From assembly GCF_002024165.1 (NCBI RefSeq), contig NZ_MWQN01000001.1, positions 1,178,001 through 1,242,000 of the forward strand: a DNA stretch of 64,000 nt, written 5' to 3'. Positions 333 to 26,461 of this stretch are shown piece after piece. The position numbers and the translations under genes were made by a program. The stretch's first letter is position 1. Every line of letters begins with the position of its first letter. The notes below the pieces were generated by a model. It saw nothing but the letters and a program-made list of their open reading frames with translations, ran no database searches and was not told where the DNA came from. The DNA comes from Embleya scabrispora. Its GTDB lineage: Bacteria > Actinomycetota > Actinomycetes > Streptomycetales > Streptomycetaceae.

Positions 333-1313
333 TCAGCCGCCGGGCAGGAGCACCACACGTCTGCCGTGCAACCGGCCCTGTTCCATCCGCCGATGCATCT
401 CGGCGGCGGCGCTCAGCGGTTGTTGCTCGAGCGTACGGGCCCGGAGTCGGCCGTTCGCCAGGAGGCGGTTGATCGTGCCCGCCGCCTCGGCGAGTTCGCC
501 GGACGTGGCATGCGAGATGACGAAGCCGGCGATCGAACAGTCCTTCATGTAGAGGCGGCGCACCGGCACCACCGGATCGGTGCCGGTCGCCGCCAGGACG
601 ACGACCCGGCCGCGCGGGGCGAGCAGCTCGACCGCCTCGGTCAGGTCGTTGCGGCCGGAGCAGTCCAGGTGCACGTCGACTCCGCCGGGGCAGGCGGCGG
701 CGATCAGGTCGAGGAGCTTCGGGTCCCGGTAGTCGAAGGCCGCGTCGGCGCCCAGGGCCCGGCAGTGGTGGAGATCCGCGGCGGCGGCGGTGGCGATCAC
801 CCGGGCCCCGGCGTCGACGGCCAGGGTCACCATGGCGCTGCCGACGTTCCCGGCCGCGCCGAGCACCAGGACCGTGTCGCCGGCGGTGACCCGGCCGTGG
901 GTGAACAGGGCCAGATACGCGGTGGCGGCGGGATGTACCACGGCGACCGCCGCCGTCGGGTCGACACCCGCCGGGAGGGGGTAGAGCCGGTCGGCGGCCA
1001 CCACCGCCTGTTCGGCCGCCGCACCCGGCCGCCCGCCGTGGCCGAGGCTGTTGGCCCACACGAGATCGCCGACAGTGAAGCCCGGCGCACCCGGCCCGGC
1101 CGCTGCCACCGTGCCGACCAGGTCGCGGCTGATCACCAGCGGAAACCCGACGGGCGTGCGGAAGACCCCGGAACGAAGCAGGATGTCGACCGGGTTGACG
1201 GTGGTGCCGAGGACGTCCACCAGGACATCGGTCGGCCCCGGTGTGGGCGCCGGGAGTTCGCCGTAGCGGATGTTCTCCGCCGGTCCGAGCGAGTCGATGA
1301 AGGCTGCGCGCAT
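333..1313 (-). CDS. Medium-chain dehydrogenase/reductase, quinone-oxidoreductase-like
   Basis: This 326-aa zinc-independent MDR protein has an N-terminal GroES-like domain (about 1-125, with the TVNPVDILLR segment) followed by a Rossmann domain with the nucleotide loop GAAGNVG at 152-158. It lacks the structural and catalytic zinc ligands of alcohol dehydrogenases, so NADPH-dependent reduction of a quinone or enone is the likely chemistry. The ATG at 1313 is preceded by GAGAATTCGAG. The gene is convergent with the left-edge reductase and lies downstream of the pseudo-transposase in the same direction. Membership in the biosynthetic cluster is plausible but not shown. Confidence 0.8.
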   Translation of the reverse strand: MRAAFIDSLGPAENIRYGELPAPTPGPTDVLVDVLGTTVNPVDILLRSGVFRTPVGFPLVISRDLVGTVAAAGPGAPGFTVGDLVWANSLGHGGRPGAAAEQAVVAADRLYPLPAGVDPTAAVAVVHPAATAYLALFTHGRVTAGDTVLVLGAAGNVGSAMVTLAVDAGARVIATAAAADLHHCRALGADAAFDYRDPKLLDLIAAACPGGVDVHLDCSGRNDLTEAVELLAPRGRVVVLAATGTDPVVPVRRLYMKDCSIAGFVISHATSGELAEAAGTINRLLANGRLRARTLEQQPLSAAAEMHRRMEQGRLHGRRVVLLPGG

Positions 1314-3661: not shown

Positions 3662-5047
3662 TCAGTCCCGGGGGTCCGCGCGCAGGGACCGCTCGACCAG
3701 GTCGGCGGCGGCGCCGGTGTAGCCGGCCGGGTCGCAGAGCCGGGTCAGCTCGGCGGTGTCGAGATGCTCGGCCACTTCGGGCAGGCTCGCGAGGTGGTCG
3801 GCGAGCGGGCGGCCCAGCCGGTCGGCCGCCTCGACGGCGCGGGTGAGCAGCGCCGCGGCGGCAGGCTTGCCCAGGTGCGCGGCCAGCACGCCGGCGACCC
3901 GTTCGGCGACGATCGCGCCGCCGGTGAGAGCGAGATTGGCGCGCATGCGCTCGGGCCGCACGACCAGGCCCTCGGCCAACTCCACGGCGGTGTGTGCGGC
4001 GCCGCCGGTCAGCCGCAGGCACTCGCGCAGCGGTTGCCACTCCGCGTGCCAGGCACCACCCGAGCGCTCGTCCTCGGCGAGCATGCACTGGGTCAACACG
4101 GCGGCCTGCGCGGGTACTTGCAGCGCGGCGCTGCGGATCAGCGTGGCCAGTACCGGATTGCGCTTCTGCGGCATGGCCGAGGAGGCACCCCGCCCGGGCA
4201 CGTGCGGCTCGACCACCTCGCCGACCTCGGTCCGGGTCGACGACTGCACGTCGACCGCGAACTTGCCCAGGGCGCCGGCGGTATGCGCCCAGGCCGCGCC
4301 GACGTCGGCGATCGGCGTACGCAGCGCATGCCACGGCAACACCTGTACACACAGGCCGGTTTCCGCGGCGAACGCGGCCACCAGCCGCTCCGGGTCGGCG
4401 CCCGCCTCGACGTAGCCGGCCAGGGTGCCGGCCGCACCGCCGAGCGAGACCGGCAGCCCGTTCGACACCGAGGCCACCCGCCGATCGGCGTCCAGGACCA
4501 GCCGCCGCCAACCCGCGGCCTTGAGCCCGAACGTGGTCGGCACCGCGTGCAGCGCGAGCGTACGCCCGGCCACCGGCGTGTCGCGGTGGCGCCGGGCGAG
4601 GGCGCCCAGGGCCTCGGCCACCCGGGCCAGGTCCGCGCGCAGCAGCGTCGCCGCGCGCCGCGCCACCAGCATCGCGGCGGTGTCGAGGATGTCCTGACTG
4701 GTGGAACCCAGATGCACGTGGCGGGCGGCGTGCGGATCGATCGCGGACACCACCCGGGTCAGCGCCCGAACCAGGGCGACGACCGGATTGGCGCTCTCGC
4801 GCGCGTCCACCGCCAGGGCCCGCAGGTCGAACCGGTCGGCGTGCGCGGCGGACGTGATCACCTCGGCCGCCGAGGCCGGCACCAGCCCGAGCGCGGCCTG
4901 CGCCCGGGCCAACGCGGCCTCGGCGTCCAGCATCGCCTGCAACCACGCCGCGTCGCCGACCGCGGCCTCCACCGGCGTGCCCGCGCGCACCGGCGACAAC
5001 AACCCGGCGTCCACGTACGAAAGTCGCCCGGCCGCGGCGCCGGTCAC
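3662..5047 (-). CDS. Aspartase/fumarase-superfamily lyase, candidate nitrosuccinate lyase (CreD-like)
   Basis: 461 aa, the usual length for the superfamily. Three conserved regions are visible: GSTSQDILDTA (114-124), GRTLALHAVPTTFG (161-174) and the signature GASSAMPQKRNP (287-298) with the mobile-loop serine. By sequence alone it would be called 3-carboxy-cis,cis-muconate cycloisomerase or adenylosuccinate lyase, but no protocatechuate or purine genes are nearby. Its GTG start overlaps by 4 bp the stop of a large FAD monooxygenase gene. That pairing matches CreE/CreD of cremeomycin biosynthesis, where the lyase splits nitrosuccinate to nitrous acid and fumarate. The superfamily is certain; the CreD role is inferred from context. 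Confidence 0.72.
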   Translation of the reverse strand: MTGAAAGRLSYVDAGLLSPVRAGTPVEAAVGDAAWLQAMLDAEAALARAQAALGLVPASAAEVITSAAHADRFDLRALAVDARESANPVVALVRALTRVVSAIDPHAARHVHLGSTSQDILDTAAMLVARRAATLLRADLARVAEALGALARRHRDTPVAGRTLALHAVPTTFGLKAAGWRRLVLDADRRVASVSNGLPVSLGGAAGTLAGYVEAGADPERLVAAFAAETGLCVQVLPWHALRTPIADVGAAWAHTAGALGKFAVDVQSSTRTEVGEVVEPHVPGRGASSAMPQKRNPVLATLIRSAALQVPAQAAVLTQCMLAEDERSGGAWHAEWQPLRECLRLTGGAAHTAVELAEGLVVRPERMRANLALTGGAIVAERVAGVLAAHLGKPAAAALLTRAVEAADRLGRPLADHLASLPEVAEHLDTAELTRLCDPAGYTGAAADLVERSLRADPRD

Positions 5048-7029
5048 ACCACGACCTCGATGTGCTCGCCCTCGGTCGCCGCGTCGATCTCGACCCGGCT
5101 CGGGCCGAGCGCGAGCACCGCTCGCGCGATCGCGTCCGCGTCGGCGATGGTCACCGAGTCCACGCCGGGCCGGATCCCGGCCGCGGTGACCCAGTGCACC
5201 GCCTCGGTGGGCACGCCGTACGCGAAGCGCCTGGGGTGTGCCCGGCCGTGCGCGTCGATCACCCGGTACGGCCGTTCGGTCACCGCCAGCCCACCGGTCT
5301 CGTAGTCGTACTCGTCCTCGCCCGAACTCGGGATGCGAAAGGTCGTACACGACTCGGTGTGCAGCAGATGGCGCAGTAGCGGATCCGCGGTGCGCCGCAG
5401 GTCGGGTTCCGGCAACCGCGCCTCGATCAGGATCTGCGCCCGCACCGAGGGCCCGGGGACCGTGGTGGAGTCGGCGATGAAGGAGGGGGTGCGGGTGTCG
5501 ATCCGGATCCGGGTGTCCGGGCCGGTCAATTCGAGCACGCCGGCCTCGATCAACGCGATCATCTGCTCGATCCGTCGTGGTGGCGGGCCGATCGACAGGA
5601 ACGCGTTCAGGGGGGTGTACCAGCGCTCCAGCTCGTCGCGGTGCGACGCCCCGTCCAGGCCGCCCTGGTCGACCGCCAGGCGGACCTCGTTGCGCAGGTC
5701 GCGCAGGACGTCCAGGGCGGCCTTGAACGGCCCGCTGACGTTGCCCTGGCGGGCCTGGCGCACATCCTCGGTGAGATGTGCCAGGAGCCATGTGCGAAAC
5801 GCGTCCCGGTCGGCGAACTCCCGTCCCCGGAGCGGATCGGCGATCGTGTCCCAGCTCCAGCGATCCGCGAGCGCAATGCCCCGGTCGGCCAGGACGGTGT
5901 CACGCTCGGCCGGCCCGGCGGTCAGATACCGCTCGGCGAACTCGCCGCACTCGTCGCCCCGGCCGGCCCGCCGGAGCAGCGTCTCGTAGTAGACCGTCTC
6001 CACCTCGCGGGCGATCAGCGGCCACAGGTCCTGCTTGAAGGAGATCGGCGCGCCCCGGCGGGAGCGAGCACGCAGCCCGGCCACGTAGTGCGGGGTCAAC
6101 AGGCGCGGGAAGTAGCGGCCGTGCGCGCCCTTCTCGTTCTCGCCACGTGCCTGATAGGGCAGACCGCGCCGAGAACTGGCGTACAGAATCGGCTCGTTGC
6201 CGCTCGACCGGTACACCGTGCGGTCGTCGACCCGCTCGAACCGGCCGCCCCGGCCCAGGGTGAACAGCGCGAGGTAGTCGAAGAAGCACAGGCCCAGGCC
6301 GCGCAGCAGTACGGGCCGGCCGGGCGCGACGCCGTCGAGGTCGGCGTCGGCCGGGTTGGTCGGGGTGAGGTAGGTCAGGTGGTTGATCCGCGCCAGGCTG
6401 GCCGTGCGCTCCTCCCGGGGCGTGGGCCGCGCCGCCACGTGTCCCTGGGCGAGCACGACCGCGTCCAGGGAGTTCAGCCGGGTCCCGTTGGCCAGTCGCA
6501 CCCCCTGCGGCCCGCCGGGAAATCCGTGGGTGTCGGCCATGGCCACGGCGCGCGAGCGGTGCTCGCGGATCTCCACGTGCGCGGGCGCGCCGTCCCGGAT
6601 CCGCCGGAAGCAGTCGGCGAAGTACCAGCCGCACAGGGTCCGCGTGGGATAGTCGTTCGGCCCGAGCCGGCCCGCCTCGGCGAGCGTGGCCGGGTCGTAC
6701 CGGTCCGCCTCGACGCCTCCGGCCGCGTGCCGCAGTGCGAGGTCCGCGGCCCATTCGTACAGGCTCGGGCCCGGCTCGATCGGCCCGTCGATCCGCGACG
6801 CGGCGTCGGAGAAGACGGTGGTCTGCGAGGCGACCGTGTTGGTCAGCAGATGCCGCGACTGTTCCATCCGCCAGACCGCGCCGGCGCCGGGCGCGGCCGG
6901 GTCGACGACGTGCACGACCAGGCTCTCGTGCGTCGGCCGGGCACGTTCGTTGGCACACAGCCGCTCCAGCACGGACAGCCCACGAGGGCCGGTGCCGATG
7001 ATGGCGATCTCGTGTGGCGTGGTGTTCAC
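5044..7029 (-). CDS. FAD/NAD(P)-binding monooxygenase, candidate L-aspartate N-oxygenase (CreE-like)
   Basis: 661 aa. It starts with a dinucleotide-binding fold, IAIIGTGPRGLSVLERL at about 8-24, typical of the large NAD_binding_9 flavoprotein family. A second glycine-rich segment (VLLRGLGLCFFDY) lies in the middle. The family includes CreE/FzmM enzymes that oxidise the amino group of L-aspartate to nitrosuccinate with FAD, NADPH and oxygen. The GTG at 7029 overlaps the stop of the aminodeoxyisochorismate synthase (GTGA), and its stop overlaps the start of the lyase in the same way, so the three are probably translated together. The length and the adjacent lyase support a CreE-type role. Without an alignment it could be another large FAD oxygenase. 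Confidence 0.7.
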   Translation of the reverse strand: MNTTPHEIAIIGTGPRGLSVLERLCANERARPTHESLVVHVVDPAAPGAGAVWRMEQSRHLLTNTVASQTTVFSDAASRIDGPIEPGPSLYEWAADLALRHAAGGVEADRYDPATLAEAGRLGPNDYPTRTLCGWYFADCFRRIRDGAPAHVEIREHRSRAVAMADTHGFPGGPQGVRLANGTRLNSLDAVVLAQGHVAARPTPREERTASLARINHLTYLTPTNPADADLDGVAPGRPVLLRGLGLCFFDYLALFTLGRGGRFERVDDRTVYRSSGNEPILYASSRRGLPYQARGENEKGAHGRYFPRLLTPHYVAGLRARSRRGAPISFKQDLWPLIAREVETVYYETLLRRAGRGDECGEFAERYLTAGPAERDTVLADRGIALADRWSWDTIADPLRGREFADRDAFRTWLLAHLTEDVRQARQGNVSGPFKAALDVLRDLRNEVRLAVDQGGLDGASHRDELERWYTPLNAFLSIGPPPRRIEQMIALIEAGVLELTGPDTRIRIDTRTPSFIADSTTVPGPSVRAQILIEARLPEPDLRRTADPLLRHLLHTESCTTFRIPSSGEDEYDYETGGLAVTERPYRVIDAHGRAHPRRFAYGVPTEAVHWVTAAGIRPGVDSVTIADADAIARAVLALGPSRVEIDAATEGEHIEVVV

Positions 7030-8978
7030 GGATGCACCCCTTCCGCGCCCGGTGTCGACACGGTCGCGCGGTGTTGCCCGGCGTCGAGCACGTCGGCGAT
7101 CAACGTGCCCAGGATTCGGGCGCCGTCGCGGGTGAGCACCGACTCGGCGTGGAACTGCACGCCCGCGAAGTGTGGTCCGCGCAGCGCGTGTACCTCGTTG
7201 ACGCCGTCCTCGCGACAGATCTCCACCGGGCCGACGTCGGGCAGATACGCGCGGTCGAACGCGCTGCGGGCCACGAAACTGTTGTAGAACCCGACCCGTT
7301 CGGGGCGGCCGAACAGTTCGATGTTCTTTTGCACACCCTGATGCGGCGTCGCGCGCCGGCGCAGATCCAGGCCCAGTTGGTGGCTGAGCACCTGATGGCT
7401 CAGGCACACCGCGAGGAACGGAAGCCGCTCGGCCAGCAGTTGCTTGATGCCGTCGTGCAGGCGCACGATCCGCGGATCGCCGTGGTCCAGCGGATCGCCG
7501 GGTCCCGGGCCCATCACCACGAGGTCGTGATCGGCGAACGAGTACGGCTGGTCGTAGCCGCGCACGCTCACCCGCAGCCCGAGCGAGCGCAGTTGGTGTG
7601 CGATCATCGCGGTGAACGCGTCCTCGGCGTCGATCACCAGGACGTGCCTGCCGGCCAGGCTCGGGAACTCCCCCGCGTCGCTCCCGGGTCCGTCCAGCCA
7701 GAAGCGGGCCAGGTCGGTATTGCGCTCGCGCAGCGCGGCCCGTACCCGTGCGTGCCCGCCCAGGGAGCGCGCCGGCGCCGGCGCCGAACGCGGGGCGCCC
7801 AGCAGGCCGTTGGCCTTGACCCACGTCTCCGCCACCTCGGCGGCCGGTTGCGAATCGCGCACCAGCGTGGCGCCGACGGCGATGGCCATCCGCCCGGAGG
7901 CGTCGATGTCGGCGGTGCGGATCAGGATCGACGAGTCCAGCGTGTGTCGTCCGGCGCCGTCGCGGCCGAACAGCGCGAGCACCCCGGAGTAGTAGCCGCG
8001 GCCCTCCGGTTCGTACCGGGCGATCACCCGGGCGGCGCTCTCCACCGGACTGCCGGTGACCGTCGGCGCGAACAGCGTGGTGCGCAACACCTCGCGGATG
8101 TCGCGGTCGGTGCGCCCCTCGATGAAGTATTCGGTGTGCGCGAGCCGGGCCATCTCCTTGAGGAACGGGCCCACCACCCGCACGCCCCGGTCGCAGACCC
8201 GGGACATCATCTTGAGTTCCTCGTCCACGACCATGTACAGCTCGTAGGTCTCCTTGCGGTCGTGCAGGAAGTCCATGACGCCGGTCAGCGTGGGCCCGGA
8301 GGTGGGATACCGGTAGGTGCCGCTGATCGGATTCATCACCGCCACGCCCCGACGCAGGCTCAGGTGCAGTTCCGGGCTGGCGCCGACCAGGGTGCGGGCG
8401 CCGGTGTGCACCAGGAACGTCCAGTAGGCGCCGGATTCGTGCGCGAGCAGGCGGCGCAGGAACGCGGCGGCGGTAGCCGGGGTGTAGTCGGTGATGTCGG
8501 CGAGGAAGCGGCGCTTGAGCACGAAGTTCGCGCCCTCGCCGGCGCTGATCTCGTCGGTCAGCACGTCGGCGACCAACGCGGCGTAGGCGTCGTCGTCGAT
8601 GTCGAAGTGCCCGTCCGTCCAGTCGATCTCCGCGTCGGGCAGCCGGCCGAGCACGTCGGCGCGGGAGAGCGTGGCCTGCTCCCGGACGGTCAGCGTGACC
8701 AGTGGTGCGCCGTCGTCGGGCGCGGGCAGGCCGCGTTCGGCGAGTTGCCGGTACGGCAGCAGCGCCAGCACATCCGGGCCGGCCGGTCCCGACGGCGAGT
8801 CGGGGATGGGGATGTCGGCGACCCGCTCCACCACGCCGATGTCCCCGGTGAGGATCTCCACCCGGTCGCCGGCGGTGACCGTGGGGCGGTACAGCAGCGC
8901 GAACGGCGGCGGGTCGGCGGCCAGGACCCGTTCCAGCAGGGCCCGGGCCGAGTCCTCGGCCGGGGGTGTGCGGCTCAT
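7026..8978 (-). CDS. phzE: PhzE-like 2-amino-2-deoxyisochorismate synthase (fused TrpE-like and amidotransferase domains)
   Basis: 650 aa, with a chorismate-binding domain (to about residue 425) and a class I glutamine amidotransferase domain (about 455-640). The first has [19 protein letters not shown] and a [11 protein letters not shown] block. The second has the oxyanion strand MGPGPGDP, the nucleophile in [10 protein letters not shown], and the FHAESV His/Glu. The domain order and the CLSHQ nucleophile site are those of PhzE, which makes ADIC from chorismate and glutamine. The ATG at 8978 overlaps the isochorismatase stop. No PhzF, PhzB or PhzG is present, so ADIC goes to the aminobenzoate branch rather than to phenazines. 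Confidence 0.9.
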
Positions 8979-9689: not shown

Positions 9690-10460
9690 TCAGGCGCCGA
9701 GCGTGGCGCCACCGTCGACCGTGAGCTCGTGCAGCGTGATGTGCCCGGCCTGGTCGGACAGCAGGAACAGCACCGCGGCGGCGACGTCCTCGGGCCGGGC
9801 GAGTTTGCCCAGCGGGATGCCGACGCGAAATGCGTCGGGGTCGCCCTCCAACGTGTGCCTGCGTCCGCTGTCGTCGTGCCACATCGACCACAACATCGGC
9901 GTGTCGGTCGACCCGGGCGCGACCACGTTGCAGCGGATGCCGTACCGGGCCACCTCCAGGCCGAGCGACTTGGTGAACATCGTGGCCGCGGCCTTGGAGG
10001 CGGCGTAGCCGGCCATCTTCGCGCGCGGGGTGCTGCCGCCGTTCGAGGACACCGTGACCAGCGCCCCCTCGCCGCGCGGCGCCATCCGGTCGACCACGGC
10101 GCGGGACATGTGGAACACCCCGCCGACGTTGACCGCGAACATGTCCGCCCAGTCGCGGTCGGACATCTCGCGGACCGGGCCGAGGCGCAACACGCCGGCC
10201 GCGTTGACCAGGAACCGCACCGGGCCCAGCTGCGCCTCGACCGCCGCCACGGTGGCCTCGACCTCGTCCGCGTCGGTGACGTCGGTGGGGAAGGCGGTCA
10301 CGGGCAGGCCCGCGGCGACCAGTTCCGCGACGTACTTGCGCAGCCGGTCCGCGTCCCGGTCCACCGCCGCCACCGCCGTGCCGCGCTCGGCGAGCGCGCG
10401 CACGACCGTGCCGCCGATCCCCCCGGCGGCGCCGGTGACCACCGCGACCTCGTTCGTCAT
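9690..10460 (-). CDS. EntA/DhbA-like SDR, predicted DHHA dehydrogenase (gives 3-hydroxyanthranilate)
   Basis: 256-aa classical short-chain dehydrogenase with the cofactor loop TGAAGGIG (9-16), NAAG, and the catalytic Ser plus YAASK. The serine neighbourhood ([15 protein letters not shown]) closely follows that of 2,3-dihydro-2,3-dihydroxybenzoate dehydrogenases. Next to PhzE/PhzD homologues, the expected substrate is the amino analogue, DHHA, oxidised with NAD+ to 3-hydroxyanthranilic acid. The same three-step route is known for benzoxazole antibiotics such as A33853 and caboxamycin. The ATG overlaps the DAHP synthase stop (ATGA). Confidence 0.85.
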
Positions 10461-11698
10461 GTCGATTGCCCTCCTGTCGCTTGGTGTGCCGGGCCCGACC
10501 CGGCCTCGGCCGCCGTCCACGCGTCGGGCGCGACCTCGGCGTCCCAGGCGGCCAGGACGAGCAGTGCCTGCTCCGCCGTCAGGCGCGGATCGCAGAAGCT
10601 GGTGTAGACCTCGCCCACCCGGTCGGCCTCCCACGTGTCGAACACGCACTCGGTGACCTGGTCCGGGGTGGTCTCCAGGTGCACGCCGCCCGGGTGTTCG
10701 CCGGCCTCGGCGAGCACCGCCCGAAACGCGGCGACCTCGCGGCGGAGCGTGCGCACGTAGCGCGTCTTGTAACCGCGGTCGGTCACCACGGTGTTGCCGT
10801 GCATCGGGTCGTTCAGCCACACCACCGGATGCCCGGCCGAGCGCACCGCGCGGACCAGGGCGGGCAGTCGCTCGGCGATGGTGTCCGCGCCCATCCGGAT
10901 GATCAGGGTGAGTCGGCCCGGCACCCGGTCCGGGTCCAACCGCAGGCACAGTTCGGTCAGTTCGGCCGGGTCGATGTCCGGGCCGACCTTGACCGCGACC
11001 GGGTTGACCACCTTCGCGAGCAGCGCCACGTGCGCGCCGTCGACCTGGCGGGTGCGCTCCCCGATCCACGGCCAGTGCGTCGAGGTCAGCAGCAGGTCGC
11101 CGGACTCGGTCCGGCGCACCAGGGGCAGTTCGTAGTCGAGGACCAGCGCCTCGTGGCTGGTCCACACCGGCACCCTCGGGTGGGCGGCCCGGTGCCGGTC
11201 CAGGTGTCCCATGATCTCGGAAGCGGCCAGATAACCGGTGACCAGGCGCAGCGGATCGGGCCGCCGCTCCTCCGCCACCGGTTTCGGGCCGTTGATCAAG
11301 TGACCTCGGTAGACCGGCAGTTCGACGCCGCCGACATACTCGGTCGGCCGGGATCGGGGCTTGGCGAACTGGCCCGCGATGCGTCCTACGCGCACGACCG
11401 GGCGCCGGCCGAGCCGTTCCATCGCGCCGGCGAGCAGGTCGAGGACGGCGATTCGGCGGGCGACATCGGCCTCGCCGCACTCGCCGGGATCCTCGGCGCA
11501 GTCGCCGGCCTGGATCAACTCCGCCGCGCCGGCGCTCACCTGCGCGAGGCCGCGGCGCAGCGTACGCACGTCGGTTTCGCCGACCAGGGCGGGGCGTCCC
11601 GCCAACGTTTGTCGAACACTGTGGATCTGGGCGTCGTCCTCCCAGTCCGGCTGTTGCGCGGCCGGGTGCCGCGGAATCGGCAGCAGGTCACTGGTCAA
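10457..11698 (-). CDS. phzC: Class II 3-deoxy-7-phosphoheptulonate (DAHP) synthase
   Basis: 413 aa, plant/actinobacterial type II DAHP synthase. Visible family blocks are QAGDCAED, VGRIAGQFAKPRS, LIIRMGAD, WLNDPMHGNT and HLETTPDQVTEC. It condenses PEP and erythrose 4-phosphate; pathway-dedicated copies commonly raise chorismate supply in aminobenzoate and phenazine clusters. The start is TTG at 11698, chosen because GGAG lies 6 bp upstream; a GTG at 11725 is also in frame. It is the first gene of the six-gene core operon and overlaps the SDR start. Confidence 0.9.
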   Translation of the reverse strand: MTSDLLPIPRHPAAQQPDWEDDAQIHSVRQTLAGRPALVGETDVRTLRRGLAQVSAGAAELIQAGDCAEDPGECGEADVARRIAVLDLLAGAMERLGRRPVVRVGRIAGQFAKPRSRPTEYVGGVELPVYRGHLINGPKPVAEERRPDPLRLVTGYLAASEIMGHLDRHRAAHPRVPVWTSHEALVLDYELPLVRRTESGDLLLTSTHWPWIGERTRQVDGAHVALLAKVVNPVAVKVGPDIDPAELTELCLRLDPDRVPGRLTLIIRMGADTIAERLPALVRAVRSAGHPVVWLNDPMHGNTVVTDRGYKTRYVRTLRREVAAFRAVLAEAGEHPGGVHLETTPDQVTECVFDTWEADRVGEVYTSFCDPRLTAEQALLVLAAWDAEVAPDAWTAAEAGSGPAHQATGGQST

Positions 11699-12041
11699 TG
11701 CCGGCTCCAGCGATTGAATGCCCACCCGGACGGCCGCGGCTATTCGGCGCGGCCGTCCGGTCTCGGAATTTACTTGGACGGTGATCCGAAACGACTGAAG
11801 AGAACACGCCCCCACCCTCGCTCTTTTGTCCGAGCGCGCCAAGGGCGGGGGTTCCGGTTCGTCAGGTCGATGCGAGTCTGTCAGCTGGCCGGCCATCCGA
11901 CGGATTCGCGAAAATCGGCTTGACCGAGGATTTACCGTCTGCGAGGGTGCCGGTATGAGGCCGAAATCCCGGGCCGAAAACGGGGCGAAGGCGCGTACCG
12001 GGAAATGAATTCGAAACCCGGCCGGGGCCGCCCGGGATCGT
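11699..12041. other. Promoter-containing gap upstream of the core operon
   Basis: About 340 bp between the DAHP synthase start and the end of the SnoaL-like gene on the same strand. The AT-richer part (about 11760-11950) is the likely site of the core-operon promoter. No gene and no strong operator repeat was found. Confidence 0.4.
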
Positions 12042-14786: not shown

Positions 14787-15587
14787 CTAGTCGAATGCGA
14801 TCTGCACCGTGCCGTCGGTGATCACCTTGACCGGCAGTCGGTCGAGCTTGATGCCGAACCACTTGTCGTACGCGGTCAACAACTCCTGCTCGTCGGTGAT
14901 CGTCACGCTCTCCCGTCGGTCGCCCTCGACCCGGCTGAACCGGTCCTCCTTGAGGGTGACCCGGCCGGTCTCGGTCGGCAGCGAGCAGAACAGGTTCTGC
15001 AGGAACGGCGAGTCGGGCGCGGTGCGATACCACCACAGCGTGGGCGCGAAGTCGGACAGCTCGCACGGCACGTCGTAGACCCGGTACAGCGCCGTGTCGT
15101 TCGCCACGACGTCGATGCCGCCGTCGTCGGCCCGCTCGATCCGGAACGCCCCGTTCGGGTCCTCCTGGACCGCGTCGGTGTCCAGGGACAGCGGGTACCT
15201 GCTGTTGCGACCGAAGCCGACGTCGACGAGCCATTCCCCGCCGTCGATCCGGACCTTGAGCGCGAGATGGCACAGCGGGGCGGTGAGATTGCCCTTGATC
15301 CACACCCGACCCGGCATTATCGAAACCTCATAGCCGAGGCTTTGCAACAGGAAGGAAAGTGCCGGATTCACTTCGTAGCAACCACCGCCCCGACGCTCGT
15401 GGACGACCTTCGCGACCACCCTTTCGTCCATCAGGATGTCTTCACCGAGGTGATAGCTCAAATTCTCGAAGGGAACCGCGAACAAATGCCTCCGGTTCAA
15501 CTCGCGCAGCGACTCCAGGTCGGCCCGCTCCGGCCGTTCCGCGGCGATGCGATCCAGGTATGCGGATACCATGGCGTCGTCGATCAC
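14787..15587 (-). CDS. Arylamine N-acetyltransferase family protein
   Basis: 266 aa, normal NAT length. The catalytic triad is visible: Cys70 in RRGGGCYEVN, His107 in PLCHLAL and Asp122 in WLVDVGFG. NATs transfer acyl groups from acyl-CoA to arylamines; in ansamycin pathways the same fold makes the closing amide bond on an aminobenzoate unit. In a cluster that should make 3-hydroxyanthranilate, it could acetylate the amine (protection) or form an amide in the product. The GTG at 15587 overlaps the stop of the amidohydrolase gene (GTGA). Confidence 0.88.
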   Translation of the reverse strand: MIDDAMVSAYLDRIAAERPERADLESLRELNRRHLFAVPFENLSYHLGEDILMDERVVAKVVHERRGGGCYEVNPALSFLLQSLGYEVSIMPGRVWIKGNLTAPLCHLALKVRIDGGEWLVDVGFGRNSRYPLSLDTDAVQEDPNGAFRIERADDGGIDVVANDTALYRVYDVPCELSDFAPTLWWYRTAPDSPFLQNLFCSLPTETGRVTLKEDRFSRVEGDRRESVTITDEQELLTAYDKWFGIKLDRLPVKVITDGTVQIAFD

Positions 15588-16600
15588 GTCAGCGATCCCC
15601 TTTCAGATTCCGAGTGGTCCGCGAATCGCGGGAAGAGTTCGGCCGCATTGCCCAACTGGATGCGGGTCAGCTCGTCCGGCGAGAACGCCCCGTGCTCGAC
15701 GATGAATCGGCCGTTCTCCGCGCTGAACGATTCCGGCATGAACGGGAAATCGGAGCCGACCAGGATCCGGTCCGGCCGGGCGAACGAGCGCACCGAGGCG
15801 AACGCGTGCGGATCGCCGATCATCGCGGTGTCCGAGTAGAGCCTTTGCAGGTAACCGATCGGATCCTCCGGGAGCCGCTCGGCGAGGTCGGAGACGATCA
15901 GCGGCCCGAGCGCCAGGCGTCCGGCGAAGTACGCCATGCCACCGCCGCCGTGGGACAGGATCAGCCGCAGGCCGGGGTGCCGCTCCAGCGTGCGGTTGTA
16001 CAGGAGCTGCGCGGTCAGCCGGACCGTCTCGAACGGGAACTCGCAGAGCGAGGCCGGGAGTCCGAAGGCGGGCTGGCCGGTGGACGGGGGCACCGTCGGG
16101 TGCACGAACATCGGCACCCGGCGGCGTGCCGCCTCGGCCAGGAACTCGTCGAGCGACGGGTCGCCGAGGTAGACCCCGTTGTAGTTGGTGATCAACCCGA
16201 CGCCGTCGAGGCCGAGCACGTCCTGGCAGTACTCCAACTCGGCCAGGGCCGCGTCCACGTGCGGCAGCGGCAACACCGCGAACGCGCCCAGTCGACCCGG
16301 ATGCCGGGACACCAGCTCGGCCATGAACTCGTTGATCCACCGGGCCAGATGGGCCCCGGTGTCCGCGTCCACCGCCGGCACCCCCGGCCAGATGTTGACC
16401 ACGGCCGCCCGGATTCCCTGCCGGTCCATCATGTCCAGGCTGGTTTCGATTTTCCACGCCGGTTTGTCGACGCCGGGCAACGTCGATGCGAACCCGAGTC
16501 TCCGCAGTTCCTCGACATAGAATTCGGGAACGATGTGGTGATGTACGTCGATGGCGTTCGACCAAGGCGTGCCCACGGCCACGGAAGCGCTTGTCCGCAT
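15584..16600 (-). CDS. Amidohydrolase-2 family decarboxylase-like protein (ACMSD / gamma-resorcylate decarboxylase type)
   Basis: 338 aa TIM-barrel metalloenzyme of the PF04909 type. Metal ligands are recognisable: IDVHHHIVP (17-24), MFVHPT (His168), LSHGGGG (His218) and VGSDFPF (Asp285). Relatives decarboxylate aromatic or dienyl acids such as aminocarboxymuconate semialdehyde, salicylates and resorcylates. Here a plausible job is removal of the carboxyl group from a 3-hydroxyanthranilate-derived intermediate to leave an o-aminophenol. The ATG at 16600 has AAGGAA upstream. It is the first gene of a two-gene minus-strand unit with the NAT and is divergent from the KAS III gene. Confidence 0.82.
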   Translation of the reverse strand: MRTSASVAVGTPWSNAIDVHHHIVPEFYVEELRRLGFASTLPGVDKPAWKIETSLDMMDRQGIRAAVVNIWPGVPAVDADTGAHLARWINEFMAELVSRHPGRLGAFAVLPLPHVDAALAELEYCQDVLGLDGVGLITNYNGVYLGDPSLDEFLAEAARRRVPMFVHPTVPPSTGQPAFGLPASLCEFPFETVRLTAQLLYNRTLERHPGLRLILSHGGGGMAYFAGRLALGPLIVSDLAERLPEDPIGYLQRLYSDTAMIGDPHAFASVRSFARPDRILVGSDFPFMPESFSAENGRFIVEHGAFSPDELTRIQLGNAAELFPRFADHSESERGSLT

Positions 16601-16864
16601 GAATTTCCTTCGTCCAGACGGTCCGGCACAGCAATACTCGACCCTACGTTCGGCATCGGGGAGTGTCGATGTGCCGGCGGGAAGTCTGTCACCTTCTGCG
16701 GACCGGTCGGTATCCGCGCCGCCGACCGAGATGACAGTTCCCGATGCATTGTCTGGAAATCCCGCGACACCGCTGCCAATCTTTCCGGGCAGAGCAGCCG
16801 CACCGGGCGTCGATCGGGTCGTCGGCCCGGATTGCTGTTCCGCGCCGACACGAGATGGGTGAAT

Positions 16865-17887
16865 ATGACTACGCACGCAGTCGGAGCACCGGGTGGGGAC
16901 GCGGTCGGGATCCTCGGTACCGGCTCCTACCTCCCCGGCGACGTGGTGACCAATACCGACGTCGGCACACCGGCCGGAGTGACCGACGAGTGGATCACCC
17001 GCAAGACCGGGATCCGCGAGCGCCGTTGGGCCAAGGCCGACGAAGCCACCTCGGACCTGGCGGTGATGGCCGCGCGAGCCGCCCTCGGCAATGCCGGCGT
17101 CCGGGCCGAACAGGTCTCGCTCGTGATCGTGGCGACGTCCACGCCGGACTCGCCGCAACCCCCCACCGCCGCCGCCGTCGCGGCCGAACTCGACGTCCCC
17201 GCGGGCACCCCCGCGTTCGACCTCAACGCCGTGTGCAGCGGCTTCGTCTTCGCGCTCACCACCGCGGAGCGGATGATCCGGGGCACCGGCGGCCACGCCG
17301 TGGTGATCGGCGCCGACATCTACTCGCGCACCCTCGACCCGAGCGATCACCGCACCGCGGTGCTGTTCGGCGACGGCGCGGGCGCGGTGGTGCTCGGCCC
17401 CGGCGCCGGTCGCGGGGTGCTGGCCACCCGACTGGCCACCTATCCGGCGGAGCGTCAGTTGATCCGGGTGCCCGCGGGCGGCTCCCGGATCCCGGCCTCG
17501 CCGGCGTCCCTCGACCAGGGACTGCACTACTTCCGGATGGACGGTCGGGCGGTGCGCGACTTCGTGGCCGAGCAGGTCGGCCCGCTGATCCGCGCGTTCC
17601 TGGCGGAGCACGCGCCGAACCCCGCGCGGCCGCCGCACTTCGTACCGCACCAGGCCAACGGCCGGATGATCGAGGCCCTCGCCGACGACCTCGGCTTCCC
17701 GATCGAGCGTACGCACACCACCGTGGAACGTTTCGGAAATACCGGCGCGGCGTCCATACCCATTTCCCTGGATGCCGCCGCCGACCGCCTCCGAGCCGGC
17801 GATTCGGTACTGCTCGCCGGTTTCGGCGGGGGTATGGCCGTCGGTCTGGCACTCGTCGAATGGGACGGGCCACGCGGCGCGGATTGA
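16865..17887 (+). CDS. 3-oxoacyl-ACP synthase III (KAS III / FabH family)
   Basis: 340 aa with the full Cys-His-Asn triad: Cys124 in LNAVCSGFVFA, His262 in VPHQANGRM and Asn292 in FGNTGAASIP. There is no PKS, ACP or other fatty-acid gene in the window. Stand-alone FabH homologues in natural-product clusters often catalyse unusual C-C, C-O or C-N acyl transfers, so an acyl-transfer step onto the aromatic unit is a reasonable guess. It begins a plus-strand unit with the SRPBCC protein, the AMP ligase and the flavin hydroxylase. The ATG at 16865 starts the conserved part; the long upstream open frame is antisense to the amidohydrolase. Confidence 0.88.
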   Translation: MTTHAVGAPGGDAVGILGTGSYLPGDVVTNTDVGTPAGVTDEWITRKTGIRERRWAKADEATSDLAVMAARAALGNAGVRAEQVSLVIVATSTPDSPQPPTAAAVAAELDVPAGTPAFDLNAVCSGFVFALTTAERMIRGTGGHAVVIGADIYSRTLDPSDHRTAVLFGDGAGAVVLGPGAGRGVLATRLATYPAERQLIRVPAGGSRIPASPASLDQGLHYFRMDGRAVRDFVAEQVGPLIRAFLAEHAPNPARPPHFVPHQANGRMIEALADDLGFPIERTHTTVERFGNTGAASIPISLDAAADRLRAGDSVLLAGFGGGMAVGLALVEWDGPRGAD

Positions 17888-17964: not shown

Positions 17965-18504
17965 ATGAGTGAAAGCAGCGTTACCACCCCCCTGTTCGAG
18001 GTCGATTTCGAAACGCGCGTGGGGAAATCACCGGCGGCCGTCTACGCCGTGCTCAGCGACCTGCCGCGCTGCCGCGAGTGGAGCGAGGAGTGCACCGGCG
18101 GGGAATGGGTCGAGGGCGCGCCGGGGGCGGTCGGTTCGGTCTTCCGCGGCGAGAACTTCCGTCGTACGGACGTGGTTTCGTGGGCTCCGGTGGTCCGCGG
18201 CGTCTGGCACACGCACGCCGAGGTGGTGGCCGCCGAACCCGGGCGCCGCTTCCGCTGGGCGATGCGGACCAACGACGGACGGGCCCAGGACAGCGTCTGG
18301 GGATTCGACATCGCCCCGGCCCCGGGCGGATCCACACTCGTGCACACCTTCCGGATGGGCACCGCCACGGAGGGAATCCGGGGCATCACCGCCGAGATGA
18401 CCGAGGACGAGAAGAAGAGATTCTTCGCCGAATGGGGAGCGAAGCTCGAAAAGGACATGGCGGCCACCGTGGCGCGGCTCAAAAAGGTCATCGAGGCCGA
18501 CTGA
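17965..18504 (+). CDS. SRPBCC (START/polyketide cyclase-like) protein
   Basis: 179 aa with the helix-grip pattern: an N-terminal strand VDFETRVGKSPAAVYAVLSDL, CREWSE, a central GSVFRGENF strand and a C-terminal amphipathic helix rich in Lys and Glu. The family includes aromatase/cyclases and ligand-binding proteins. Two in-frame ATGs exist (17953 and 17965); the second fits the sequence better. It lies between the KAS III and AMP-ligase genes in the same direction. Confidence 0.7.
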   Translation: MSESSVTTPLFEVDFETRVGKSPAAVYAVLSDLPRCREWSEECTGGEWVEGAPGAVGSVFRGENFRRTDVVSWAPVVRGVWHTHAEVVAAEPGRRFRWAMRTNDGRAQDSVWGFDIAPAPGGSTLVHTFRMGTATEGIRGITAEMTEDEKKRFFAEWGAKLEKDMAATVARLKKVIEAD

Positions 18505-18557: not shown

Positions 18558-20144
18558 ATGCTTCTGCAGCGCATAGGTAATCGCGGCATACGCCTGGGCA
18601 CGCTGTTCGACCGGGCCGCCGCCAAGTACCCGTCGAACGTCCTGATGCTCGACCACGACTTGGACATCGCCCCGGAACGCGGCCGCAGCATGACGATCGC
18701 GGACGCCGCCGAACTGGTGAGCGACCTCGGCACCCGGTTGTGGCGCGCGCGGGTACGGCCCGGCGACCACGTGGTGGTGTACAAGAGCAACGCGTTCGAC
18801 ATCACCCTGCTGGCCGTCGCGGCCGCGCGGATCGGTGCCGTGCCGGTGCTGCTGTCCCCGTACCTGGACGGCGAGACGGTGACCGCGCTGCTCGACCGGG
18901 TCGAGCGGCCGGTGCTGATCACCGACGTCGCCAAGCTCGAATCCGCGCTCCCCGACTCGGTGTTCACCCACGCCGACCGGGTCCTGCTGGCCGCGGGCGA
19001 ACACCCGCGCGCGACGAGCCTGGCCGAGCCGGCCGCGGCCCCGCACGTCCCGGCGCTGTGGATGCCGCCGGAGCACCCGACGCTGGTGACGCACACCTCG
19101 GGCACCACCGGAATCCCGAAGCTGGCCGTGCACACCGGCTACAGCCTGGAGGCCCGCTACCGGCCGCAGGCGCTGGCGACGACGCTGATGCGCCGGCGCG
19201 AAACGGTGGCCATGCACGTCTCGTTCGTGCACTCGAGGCTGTTCACCGCGCTGGCCATCTCGCTGCTTCGCGGCTTCCCGGTGGCGGTGCTGGCGAATCC
19301 GGACCCCGAGCACGCCGCGGCCTTGTTCGCGCGCTGGCGGCCGGCCGTACTGGAGGCGCACCCGAACACCTACCTCAGCTGGGAACCGCTCGCGGACGAC
19401 CCGCGCGCGCCGCTGTCCAACGTCAAGTTCTTCAGCAGCACCTTCGACGCGCTGCACCCGCGCACGGTGCGCACCCTGATCGGCGCGTCCCGGCGCCGCG
19501 CGCCGAGGTTCGGGCAGATCTACGGACAGAGCGAGGTCGGCCCGAGCGTGGCGCGCTCCTACGGCCGCAACCGCTCGCCGGAAGCCGACGGACGGTGCGT
19601 GGGCATCCCCTTCCCCGGGATGACGGGGGTGCGGGTGATCAGCCGGGACGGCAATCCGCCCTCGCCGACCTCGCCCGGGTTCATCGAGATCAGCAGCGAC
19701 GGTCGTATCCGCACCTACCTGGGCGAGCAGGAGCGGTTCCACAAGCAGGCCGACCGGGAGTGGTGGCGGATGGGCGACCTCGGCTACCGCACCCGGTGGG
19801 GTTGTCTGCACCTGATGGACCGGGAGGTGGACGAGATCCCCGGCTTCGGCAGCACGCTGGACGTGGAGGACCGACTGTTCACCCGGCTCGACGAGTTGGC
19901 CGAGGTGGTCATCGTGCCGATGCCGCAGGGCCCGCCCCGACCGGTGGTGTGCACCAAGGACGACCGGCCGTTGGACCACGCCGCCTGGCGGGCCGCGGTG
20001 GTCGATCTGCCCCCGATGGCCGAGCCGACGCAGTGGCGCAGGGCAGACCTGCCGCAGACGGCCACCACCAAGATCAAGCGCCTGGAGCTGATCCGACTGC
20101 TCGACGGCGCCTCCGGCGGGTCGCAGGTCGGGGAACCGGCGTGA
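18558..20144 (+). CDS. AMP-forming acyl-CoA synthetase family ligase; candidate diazotase (CreM/AvaA6-like) or aryl-acid activator
   Basis: 528 aa ANL-superfamily adenylating enzyme. Motifs: P-loop THTSGTTGIPK (178-188), YGQSE (322-326), GDLGYR (406-411) and the C-terminal catalytic-lysine segment TTKIKRLEL. The usual hinge motif is present but divergent (DREVDEIPGFGS). ANL ligases usually activate carboxylates as acyl-AMP or acyl-CoA. In cremeomycin and avenalumic-acid diazo clusters, a member of this same family joins nitrous acid to an aromatic amine using ATP. This is the only ANL gene in a window that also has a CreE/CreD-like pair, so either role is open. Its stop overlaps the start of the flavin hydroxylase (GTGA). 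Confidence 0.75.
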   Translation: MLLQRIGNRGIRLGTLFDRAAAKYPSNVLMLDHDLDIAPERGRSMTIADAAELVSDLGTRLWRARVRPGDHVVVYKSNAFDITLLAVAAARIGAVPVLLSPYLDGETVTALLDRVERPVLITDVAKLESALPDSVFTHADRVLLAAGEHPRATSLAEPAAAPHVPALWMPPEHPTLVTHTSGTTGIPKLAVHTGYSLEARYRPQALATTLMRRRETVAMHVSFVHSRLFTALAISLLRGFPVAVLANPDPEHAAALFARWRPAVLEAHPNTYLSWEPLADDPRAPLSNVKFFSSTFDALHPRTVRTLIGASRRRAPRFGQIYGQSEVGPSVARSYGRNRSPEADGRCVGIPFPGMTGVRVISRDGNPPSPTSPGFIEISSDGRIRTYLGEQERFHKQADREWWRMGDLGYRTRWGCLHLMDREVDEIPGFGSTLDVEDRLFTRLDELAEVVIVPMPQGPPRPVVCTKDDRPLDHAAWRAAVVDLPPMAEPTQWRRADLPQTATTKIKRLELIRLLDGASGGSQVGEPA

Positions 20145-21613
20145 GTACCATCGCCGTCGCCGGCGGCGGCATCGGCGGCCTCGCCTCGGCGCTCGCCCTG
20201 GCCGCCCGCGGCCACGACGTCGTGGTGTGCGAACGCAGCCCCGAATTCGTCGAGTTGGGCGCCGGCATCCAGCTCGCCCCCAACGGGATGCACGCGCTCG
20301 ACCGCCTCGGTCTGGCCGAAGCGGTCGGCCGGATCGCCGTCCCCGTGGGCGAACTGCGCTTCATGGACGGGGTCACCGGGGAACACGTGGTGGCCATGCC
20401 GCTGGATCGGCGCTACCGCGACCGCTTCCGCAACGCCTACGTGGTGGTGCACCGGGGCGAGTTGTACCGGCTGCTGCTCGACGCCTGCCGAAGCCGCGCG
20501 GGGATCGAACTGCGGGCCTCGCACCCGGTGGTCGGCTACGCGCACGAGGCGGACGCGGTACGGGTGTTGCTCGCCGACGGGGCGAGCCTGGGCGCCGATG
20601 CGCTGATCGGCGCCGACGGGCTGCACTCCGCGATCCGCGCGCAGTTGGTCGGCGACGGCGCGCCGCGCGACGCCGGCATCACCGTGTACCGCTCGATCGT
20701 GCCGATGGAGCGGGTGCCGACCGAACTGCGGCACATGTCGGTGACGTGGTGGGCCGGGCCGGGGCGGCACTTCGTGCACTGTCCGATCGCCGGCGGCCGC
20801 TTTCTCAATCTGGCGCCCAGCGCGGAGAACGCGCCCGCCGAGACCTTCTCGGGGGTTTCGGTGCCGGCGTCCGAGGTGCTCGGCGAGTTCGGCGCGCTCT
20901 GCGAGAGCGCACGGCGGCTGCTCGAACTGGGCGCCGACTGGAAGGCGTGGGTACTGGTCGACCGGGAACCCGTGGACGGTTGGACGGACGGACGGGTCGC
21001 CCTGCTCGGCGACGCGGCCCACCCGATGCTCCACTACGCGGCCCAGGGCGCCTGTATGGCCCTCGAGGACGCTGTGGTCCTGGGCGACCTGTTGGACTGC
21101 CCCGCGGGGTGGTTCGCGGCCCGCCTGGGCCGATACAACGCCGTCCGCCGCGAGCGCACCGCGCGGGTGCATCGGCTGGCCCGGGACAGCATCGCGCTGT
21201 GGCACGCCGAGGACGCGGCGGCCGAGGCCCGCAACAAGACGCTGTCCGCGATGTCGCCGGCCGAGTTGTACGACTTCGTCGCCTGGCTGCACGGCACCCG
21301 GGAGTTCGCCGGCTCGCCGTCCGTCACTCCGGCGATCCAGGACCCCGCGGAAAACTCGGCCTACACCCTCGGCGGCCGGCTGGACCCGACCGAGACGCCG
21401 AACCCGAGGACACCGTCCCGGTCGCCCCGAAGCGCGGCCGCCGGCTCACCCGCGTCCGCACGAAGTGCCGGTACGTACACCCTCGGCGGGTGGCTCGAAC
21501 CGGCCGAGGACCCGCAACCGGTCACGCCGCCCCGGTCGCCCCGGAATCCGGCCGCCGGCCCGCTCGCGTCCCCGCGAAGCACGGGCACGAAGGAGTCGCC
21601 GAAGACCCTGTGA
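20141..21613 (+). CDS. FAD-dependent aromatic hydroxylase (salicylate / 3-hydroxybenzoate hydroxylase type) with a repeated C-terminal tail
   Basis: 490 aa. The first ~395 residues form a normal group A flavin monooxygenase: GGGIGGLASALALA at the N-terminus, GADGLHSAIR in the middle and LLGDAAHPMLHYAAQGA near 290. Group A enzymes hydroxylate phenols and can decarboxylate salicylate-type acids while hydroxylating. The last ~95 residues are a Pro/Ser/Arg-rich tail made of two similar 38-residue units, each starting near TLGG. The GTG start overlaps the ligase stop. It could oxidise the aminophenol ring in the cluster's product. Confidence 0.85.
   Translation: MSTIAVAGGGIGGLASALALAARGHDVVVCERSPEFVELGAGIQLAPNGMHALDRLGLAEAVGRIAVPVGELRFMDGVTGEHVVAMPLDRRYRDRFRNAYVVVHRGELYRLLLDACRSRAGIELRASHPVVGYAHEADAVRVLLADGASLGADALIGADGLHSAIRAQLVGDGAPRDAGITVYRSIVPMERVPTELRHMSVTWWAGPGRHFVHCPIAGGRFLNLAPSAENAPAETFSGVSVPASEVLGEFGALCESARRLLELGADWKAWVLVDREPVDGWTDGRVALLGDAAHPMLHYAAQGACMALEDAVVLGDLLDCPAGWFAARLGRYNAVRRERTARVHRLARDSIALWHAEDAAAEARNKTLSAMSPAELYDFVAWLHGTREFAGSPSVTPAIQDPAENSAYTLGGRLDPTETPNPRTPSRSPRSAAAGSPASARSAGTYTLGGWLEPAEDPQPVTPPRSPRNPAAGPLASPRSTGTKESPKTL
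21362..21589 (+). repeat. 114-bp in-frame tandem duplication in the flavin hydroxylase tail
   Basis: The word TACACCCTCGGCGG occurs at 21362 and again at 21476, exactly 114 bp (38 codons) apart, and the sequence after each word stays similar through a Pro/Arg/Ser-rich stretch. It is a diverged tandem repeat that keeps the reading frame. Confidence 0.7.
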
Positions 21614-22880: not shown

Positions 22881-22902
22881 CTGTGGCATCAAAACGCCAC
22901 AG
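22881..22902. promoter_or_regulatory. Perfect palindrome upstream of the TPR regulator
   Basis: CTGTGGC, 8-nt spacer (ATCAAAAC), GCCACAG: a 7-bp perfect inverted repeat in an AT-richer patch about 80 bp upstream of the regulator's start codon. Position and symmetry suggest an operator, possibly autoregulatory. Confidence 0.45.
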
Positions 22903-23323
22903 CGTGCTTCCGTGTCTTATATGGTTCGGCCGGCGGGCCGGGGGCCGGCGGGGGACCGCGTCCCCTGCGGAGAGTCGCGAAGAGCGGGTGGCCCGGCCTG
23001 TGCCGCAGGTGCCGGGACCCGCCGCAGAGGGCTGTCCGGGTGGGGCCCGCGCCCATTCTCCCGGGCTCCGCCAACCCTCCTGACCTGCACGGAAGTCGGC
23101 TGATCGAGGGTTGGTACGCGGCAGGCCGGAGCGTTCCACCGAGGCCGACGGCGCGCTTCCCGAACGTCACCCAGCGGGGCCGGCGAGGGGGTGTCGAGGG
23201 GGCCGCCGGCTCATTCTCGCTCTGAGATGAACGGCCGGATCCCGCCGGTCCGGATCCGCGTGCCCCGGTCCGGCCGGCGACCGGAACGGCCGCCTGGCGC
23301 CGCGCGATTCCCTCGCGCGCATG
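22903..23323. other. Gene-free gap between the regulator promoter and the right transposase remnant
   Basis: About 420 bp of very GC-rich sequence. Open frames here are long only because stop codons are rare. No ribosome site with a plausible protein was seen. Confidence 0.4.
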
Positions 23324-23607
23324 CGGGTGGTCGAGCACCGCCCGCCGCAGCCGCGGCCACACCCCCGCGTTCGTCCACACCGTGAACCGACGATGCGCCG
23401 TCGGCGACGCCACCCCGAAACACGCCGGCAACTGCCGCCACGCACACCCGCTGGTCAGCACGAACACCACCGCCGTGAACACCGCACGCTCCTCCACCGG
23501 CGCCCGACCACCCCCCTGCCGCCGCACCCCGAAACCCGGCAACAACGGAACCACCAACTCCCACAGACGATCCGACACCAACCGCCCCGACAGCGCATCA
23601 CCCACCA
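23324..23607 (-). mobile_element. Truncated IS5-type transposase fragment, right copy of the 284-bp inverted pair
   Basis: Same 284 bp as 14351-14634 but in the opposite orientation, and apparently identical base for base. It encodes the same N-terminal transposase segment and stops at the same point, after the Leu-Asp-His-Pro codons. Together the two copies enclose about 8.7 kb holding the NAT-to-regulator block. Confidence 0.8.
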
Positions 23608-26454: not shown

Positions 26455-26461
26455 GGGATAC

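What the first reader, a model, noticed from the sequence alone, without database searches (positions are those of the whole stretch)
18558..20144. The only ANL ligase in the window is a candidate diazotase
If nitrous acid is made, an enzyme must condense it with the amine. In the cremeomycin (CreM) and avenalumic-acid (AvaA6) pathways this is done by acyl-CoA-synthetase-like proteins using ATP. This protein has all adenylation motifs but a divergent hinge loop (DREVDEIPGFGS), and no carrier protein is seen beside it. Its neighbour, translationally coupled, is an aromatic flavin hydroxylase.
Basis: inference. Interest (0 to 1): 0.7.

Follow-up and report, generated by a model that had tools for sequence, protein, structure and literature searches.

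The report
Nitrite-using diazo-forming ligase, Embleya cluster
This gene almost certainly encodes an enzyme that uses ATP to join nitrite to an aromatic amine and so make a reactive diazo group, in an undescribed antibiotic-type gene cluster; the enzyme type is known, but the cluster's product is not.

Summary
The ORF is real: 528 aa, ATG at 18558, a 4-base overlap with the flavin hydroxylase, no carrier protein beside it. The diazotase reading is well supported. Its profile matches the solved nitrite-using enzyme Tri17 better than any annotated CoA ligase. It carries three motifs (DAxH, RCxG, DRxxD) present in all AvaA6/Tri17-type sequences checked and rare in 26 other adenylating enzymes of this genome (DAxH in 0 of 26); the 'divergent hinge' is one of them. 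The only nitrosuccinate lyase above cut-off in the genome lies 13.5 kb away. Of 79 distinct orthologs, at least 52 have CreE or CreD within about 10 kb. It is not an AvaA6 (67 bits, cut-off 975) but belongs, by gene content and size, with CreM-like Pzm18 of the published penzonemycin cluster. New points: 25 orthologous stretches hold a nitrate transporter/nitrate reductase module, 7 of them without CreE/CreD, a second likely nitrite source. The Embleya cluster replaces parts of pzm with KASIII, arylamine N-acetyltransferase, an ACMSD-like amidohydrolase and a carboxylic acid reductase, so its product should differ. Substrate and product are inferred; nothing was assayed.

The parts
18558..20144 (+). 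ANL-superfamily ligase, proposed ATP-dependent aryl diazotase (528 aa)
   Evidence: PF00501 2.7e-37; profile: 9xb8, then Tri17 9bq0/8tf7 rank above all CoA ligases; motifs; linkage
20141..21613 (+). FAD aromatic hydroxylase, overlaps the ANL stop by 4 bases
   Evidence: PF01494; NF006021 400 bits; homologs in 33 of 79 ortholog stretches
17965..18504 (+). SRPBCC protein (179 aa), equivalent in position and size to Pzm19 (180 aa)
   Evidence: PF10604 4e-11; homolog in 69 of 79 ortholog stretches; PMC9323291 table 3
16832..17887 (+). KASIII-type ketosynthase with Cys-His-Asn residues, possible maker of the coupling partner
   Evidence: PF08545/PF08541, sequence; homologs only in E. hyalina, Actinopolyspora L069, L153, L161 among the ortholog stretches
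15584..16582 (-). Amidohydrolase-2 family protein, ACMSD/decarboxylase-like
   Evidence: PF04909 1.8e-31; PDB best hits ACMSD ~1e-25
14787..15587 (-). Arylamine N-acetyltransferase (NAT), candidate N-acylation step
   Evidence: PF00797 3.9e-57; NF011621 103 bits, below cut-off
3662..5047 (-). CreD-type nitrosuccinate lyase
   Evidence: NF052556 727 bits, cut-off 650; PDB CreD 5xny 5.6e-162; only one above cut-off in the genome
5044..7029 (-). CreE-type FAD monooxygenase (661 aa), overlaps CreD and PhzE-like genes by 4 bases
   Evidence: PF13454; PDB 8cp2 8.7e-184; size and context match Pzm12 (659 aa), reported as CreE homolog
7026..8978 (-). PhzE-like ADIC/anthranilate-synthase type enzyme (650 aa, as Pzm6)
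   Evidence: PF00425 + PF00117; table 3 of PMC9323291
8975..9676 (-). PhzD-like isochorismatase
   Evidence: PF00857 1e-41
9690..10460 (-). SDR dehydrogenase (256 aa, as Pzm8), last step to 3-hydroxyanthranilate
   Evidence: PF00106 1.4e-58
10457..11725 (-). Class II DAHP synthase, shikimate supply
   Evidence: PF01474 3.4e-125
333..1313 (-). Zinc-type alcohol dehydrogenase/quinone reductase, Pzm13-like, conserved near the ANL in many orthologous loci
   Evidence: PF00107/PF08240
1..314 (+). C-terminal tail of a carboxylic acid reductase (1179 aa) that begins left of the window
   Evidence: NF041592 1484 bits; L206:14775-18311

Best explanation
The protein is an ATP-dependent aryl diazotase of the CreM/Pzm18 branch. 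CreE oxidises L-aspartate to nitrosuccinate and CreD releases nitrous acid (established chemistry of this pair; homology shown here). The ANL enzyme binds ATP-Mg, activates nitrite as an adenylate-type species (mechanism proposed for Tri17; inferred here), and the amine of an ortho-aminophenol made from 3-hydroxyanthranilate attacks it; loss of water gives a diazo-quinone/diazonium. No CoA or carrier-protein step is used. The most likely substrate is 3-hydroxyanthranilate or a close derivative after the coupled flavin hydroxylase, NAT or the ACMSD-like enzyme has acted (inferred). The diazo compound is then probably coupled to a nucleophile, perhaps a KASIII-made beta-keto compound, to give an aryl hydrazone related to but different from penzonemycin (inferred). 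The confidence given is for the diazotase function; for 3-HAA itself as the substrate I would give about 0.4.
For: Profile of 29 family members against the PDB: 9xb8 (2e-41; molecule name 'FadD', function not known to me), then Tri17 (1.8e-35), ahead of the best annotated CoA ligase 3g7s (6e-31) (identity of 9bq0/8tf7 as Tri17 from PMC11705231). Motifs DAxH, RCxG, DRxxD: 80/80, 79/80, 80/80 in the orthologs, 7/7 each in AvaA6/Tri17-type, versus 0/26, 1/26, 5/26 in other ANLs of this genome. Tree separates CoA ligases from AvaA6/Tri17 plus this family at 100/99. Linkage: 46 of 79 ortholog stretches hold CreE and CreD, 52 at least one, 33 hold PhzE/PhzD-type 3-HAA genes; E. hyalina keeps the whole arrangement. 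One CreD above cut-off in 10.96 Mb, 13.5 kb from the ANL. Relatives at 45-51% sit with other amine makers: type III PKS + aminotransferase, or PabAB + class IV aminotransferase. The published pzm cluster has the same parts and sizes.
Against: No assay. CreM and Pzm18 sequences are not held, so identity to them was not measured. Foldseek places the solved diazotase CmaA6 first, but aryl-acid adenylases score almost equally and the model is only pLDDT 75. The tree has long branches and midpoint rooting. 20 of 79 ortholog stretches show neither CreE/D nor NasC, partly because contigs or stretches end.
Confidence: 0.86

Rival explanations
1. It is an ordinary aryl-CoA or aryl-AMP ligase that activates the carboxylate of 3-hydroxyanthranilate (benzoxazole-type or starter-unit chemistry, as NatL2/BomJ do), and the ANS nitrite serves another enzyme.
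For: Same superfamily; 3-HAA genes, a KASIII and an amidohydrolase are near, as in the A33853/nataxazole type of cluster; Foldseek hits include salicylate and benzoate ligases.
Against: CoA-type hinge GR..D.I..G absent in all 104 family members, and DAxH/RCxG/DRxxD present. NatL2 is a PaaK-type ligase and NatAM has about 494 residues (PMC7204872); the window amidohydrolase has 332 and matches ACMSD. No other complete ANL in the 64 kb could use the nitrite. The KASIII and amidohydrolase are not conserved with the ANL; CreE/CreD and the SRPBCC are.
Confidence: 0.07
2. It activates nitrite but nitrosates something other than an aromatic amine (a hydrazine, hydrazone or carbon centre), as Tri17 makes N-hydroxytriazenes.
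For: Tri17 is the closest characterised solved relative by profile and is promiscuous (PMC11705231).
Against: The varied neighbours of the family share the making of an aromatic amine (3-HAA, PABA-type, aminonaphthoquinone-type).
Confidence: 0.05
3. It is a diazotase, but the diazo group is only a transient leaving group: the ANL is part of a deamination route, as in the avenalumic and p-coumaric acid pathways. (This is a variant of the best explanation and overlaps with it.)
For: Known use of ANL diazotases (AvaA6/CmaA6, PMC10777205); an NAD(P)-binding protein is nearby at 23804-24532.
Against: No comparison with AvaA7 was made; 3-HAA would lose its only nitrogen, which makes the dedicated amine supply pointless; the published relative pzm keeps the N-N bond.
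Confidence: 0.1

Closest known systems
Pzm18 in the penzonemycin (pzm) cluster, Streptomyces sp. SCSIO 40020 (PMC9323291; UUJ74630.1)
   Same: Size (527 vs 528 aa), adjacent SRPBCC gene (180 vs 179 aa), CreD/CreE (459/659 vs 461/661 aa), PhzE-like 650 aa, SDR 256 aa, isochorismatase, DAHP synthase, quinone reductase.
   Different: Window lacks acetolactate synthase and the pzm17 acyl-CoA ligase; has KASIII, NAT-family acetyltransferase instead of Pzm3, ACMSD-like amidohydrolase, coupled flavin hydroxylase and a carboxylic acid reductase. Direct sequence identity not measured; Pzm18 function itself untested.
CreM, cremeomycin diazotase (Streptomyces cremeus)
   Same: ANL ligase working with CreE/CreD on an o-aminophenol carboxylate; Mg-binding glutamate (CreM E352) has a likely counterpart in invariant E326 of YGQSE.
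   Different: Precursor is 3,4-AHBA-derived in cremeomycin, 3-HAA here; CreM is 48% identical to Pzm18 by the paper, identity to the window protein not measured.
AvaA6/CmaA6 diazotases
   Same: DAxH, RCxG, DRxxD motifs in AvaA6-type sequences; ATP and nitrite use; CmaA6 (8ztz) is the top Foldseek hit.
   Different: 25-27% identity to AvaA6-type; 67 bits against the AvaA6 cut-off of 975; works with a type II PKS there.
Tri17 (triacsin N-nitrosylase, PDB 9bq0/8tf7)
   Same: Closest characterised solved relative by profile; same motif set.
   Different: Acts on hydrazones; separate branch in the tree.

Membership tests
CreM/Pzm18-type ATP-dependent aryl diazotase | ANL fold with ATP/Mg motifs (P-loop, A5 Glu, A7 Asp, A10 Lys) | tested here: met
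   E326, D407, K505 invariant
CreM/Pzm18-type ATP-dependent aryl diazotase | Motifs shared with characterised nitrite-using ANLs and rare in CoA ligases (DAxH, RCxG, DRxxD) | tested here: met
   80/80, 79/80, 80/80 vs 0/26, 1/26, 5/26 in controls
CreM/Pzm18-type ATP-dependent aryl diazotase | Genetic linkage to a nitrite-making system, conserved across species | tested here: met
CreM/Pzm18-type ATP-dependent aryl diazotase | Sequence identity to CreM and Pzm18 themselves | not testable with these tools
   Neither sequence is held; gene sizes and content agree with PMC9323291
CreM/Pzm18-type ATP-dependent aryl diazotase | Nitrite- and ATP-dependent diazotisation of an aryl amine | not testable with these tools
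   Needs purified enzyme
3-aminoavenalumate diazotase AvaA6 (NF058622) | Score over the curated cut-off | tested here: not met
   67.4 bits against 975
Aryl-CoA ligase | CoA-type A8 hinge GR..D.I..GG | tested here: not met
   Hinge is DREVDEIPGFGS; 0 of 104 family members have the CoA type
Benzoxazole synthesis pair NatL2/NatAM (BomJ/BomN) | PaaK-type ligase plus ~494-residue amidohydrolase | tested here: not met
   Best PDB relatives are 9xb8/Tri17/FadD; amidohydrolase is 332 aa and ACMSD-like; NatAM size from PMC7204872
ANS nitrous acid pathway (CreE/CreD) | Nitrosuccinate lyase over curated cut-off plus adjacent CreE-type monooxygenase | tested here: met

The most novel reading that the evidence does not exclude
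This diazotase branch is not tied to the aspartate route for nitrite: in part of it a dedicated nitrate importer and nitrate reductase, without a nitrite-consuming siroheme domain, feeds the same enzyme; and in the Embleya cluster the diazo product is captured by a KASIII-made beta-keto partner to give a new class of N-acyl aryl hydrazone.
Probability: 0.3. Interest if true: 0.62.

Novelty: new member of a known kind. Interest (0 to 1): 0.45.

Why it matters
Nitrite-using ANL enzymes are few and are sought as diazotisation catalysts. A large, well-marked branch (about 40% of sampled genomes of this bacterial family hold a relative at E<=1e-50) with simple sequence marks gives many testable enzymes. 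The pairing with a nitrate reductase module would answer how diazo clusters without CreE/CreD get nitrite, a point left open in the literature (PMC10777205) and so far argued, in what I could read, only for alanosine (PMC11705231).

Tried and rejected
Benzoxazole cluster (3-HAA + ligase + KASIII + amidohydrolase): rejected because the ligase is not PaaK-type, the amidohydrolase is short and ACMSD-like, and these genes are not conserved with the ANL. AvaA6 orthology: rejected by score. Structure search as a discriminator: weak, diazotases and aryl-acid adenylases score alike. CreM, Pzm18 and the cre cluster could not be obtained; the ~45-51% relatives fetched belong to naphthoquinone-, PABA- and anthranilate-like clusters, and no 3,4-AHBA-type one was identified. 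The first motif control parsed only 8 control sequences and was repeated with 26. 9xb8 ranks first by profile but its function is not known to me, so it is not used as evidence.

Full report
What is there. The ORF 18558-20144 (+) encodes a 528-residue ANL-superfamily protein. Its N-terminus is conserved in orthologs, so the ATG start is very likely right. A gene list made with a codon-usage model of my own (starts approximate) and Pfam/NCBIfam scans shows on the minus strand a 3-hydroxyanthranilate block of tightly spaced or overlapping genes: DAHP synthase, SDR, isochorismatase, PhzE-like enzyme, CreE, CreD. On the plus strand are KASIII, SRPBCC, ANL, flavin hydroxylase. NAT and an ACMSD-like amidohydrolase lie between, on the minus strand. 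The window's first 314 bases are the tail of a carboxylic acid reductase.

Organism. The window is G000:C1:1178001-1242000; Embleya hyalina NBRC 13850 carries a 97% identical ANL and the same order of genes.

Nitrite is made here. The lyase scores 727 bits against the nitrosuccinate lyase model (cut-off 650), matches solved CreD at 5.6e-162, and is the only one above cut-off in the genome. The monooxygenase next to it matches PDB 8cp2 and has the size of Pzm12, reported as a CreE homolog.

The ANL looks like a nitrite-using enzyme. A profile of 29 family members hits PDB 9xb8 first, Tri17 second, then CoA ligases. The solved diazotase CmaA6 is the top Foldseek hit of the AlphaFold model, though aryl-acid adenylases follow closely and the model has pLDDT 75. 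Three motifs set the family and AvaA6/Tri17 apart from 26 other ANLs of the same genome: DAxH (297-300), RCxG (346-349) and DRxxD (421-425). A maximum-likelihood tree separates CoA ligases from AvaA6/Tri17 and this family with 100/99 support, with the usual warning about long branches and rooting.

Linkage. Searches gave relatives at E<=1e-50 in 164 of 395 genomes of the family, in roughly three identity bands: at least 57%, 45-53% and 36-43%. For 79 distinct orthologs (at least 57%) with up to 10 kb on each side: CreE and CreD in 46, at least one in 52, a NasC-like nitrate reductase in 25, NasC without CreE/CreD in 7, SRPBCC in 69, hydroxylase in 33, PhzE/PhzD in 33. These are lower bounds; E. 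hyalina itself counts as 'neither' because its CreE/CreD begin just outside the stretch. Relatives at 45-51% lie with a type III PKS, cupin and aminotransferase (naphthoquinone-type amines), or with PabAB and a class IV aminotransferase (PABA-type), again with CreE/CreD in some. The amine maker varies, the nitrite maker recurs: what one expects of a diazotase.

A second nitrite source. The module downstream of CreD in many orthologous loci is a NarK-family nitrate/nitrite transporter (277 bits, cut-off 312), a NasC-like assimilatory nitrate reductase (719 bits, best family, below its cut-off of 1100), and a flavoprotein with NirB-like N-terminal and [2Fe-2S] domains but no siroheme domain. That would make nitrite and stop there (inference). 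Nitrate/nitrite reductases have been suggested as a source for alanosine (PMC11705231); I found no report for aryl diazotase clusters in the library held.

Comparison with the known. The published penzonemycin cluster contains the same set with nearly the same protein sizes: Pzm18 527 aa with Pzm19 SRPBCC 180 aa, CreD/CreE homologs 459/659 aa, PhzE-like 650 aa, SDR 256 aa. Pzm18 is called a CreM homolog (48%) there, its function untested. The window differs in KASIII, NAT, amidohydrolase, flavin hydroxylase and carboxylic acid reductase, and lacks acetolactate synthase and the second ligase. The product should therefore be related but not identical.

What is shown and what is inferred. Shown: ORF, motifs, homology of CreE/CreD and the 3-HAA genes, conserved linkage, branch placement relative to AvaA6. 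Inferred: nitrite adenylation, the substrate, the order of acylation/hydroxylation, coupling with a KASIII product.

Noticed in passing
L069:12961-16428; L070:16334 onward; also L076, L084, L103, L142, L150: NarK-like transporter (in most), NasC-like nitrate reductase and a NirB-N-terminal-like flavoprotein lie beside the diazotase gene, in 7 stretches without CreE/CreD: a probable second nitrite supply.
   Followed up: partly
window 17965-18504: An SRPBCC protein is next to or near the diazotase gene in 69 of 79 orthologous stretches; its role is unknown.
   Followed up: no
L092, L112-L116, L155, L159, L160, L162: Clusters with two diazotase-family ligases (about 65% plus 50-60% identity), which suggests two N-N bond steps in one pathway.
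   Followed up: no
L117, L118, L120, L122, L123, L226: More distant ANL branch (37-41%) with two DegT aminotransferases, UbiA prenyltransferase and an amine oxidase; RDLG in place of RCVG in those aligned: a cluster type I could not match to a known one.
   Followed up: no
window 1-314 and L206:14775-18311: Carboxylic acid reductase opposite the zinc alcohol dehydrogenase at the left edge; may reduce the aryl carboxylate.
   Followed up: partly
window 14338-14709 and 22889-23776: IS4/5-family transposase pieces (DUF4096) around the NAT-KASIII-ANL-hydroxylase segment; a DDE_5 transposase at 1570-2790.
   Followed up: no
window 24603-29381: Methyltransferase, two 2OG-Fe(II) oxygenases and an MFS exporter in one run, kept in E. 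hyalina at 98-99%; not shared with other diazotase loci, possibly a separate cluster.
   Followed up: no
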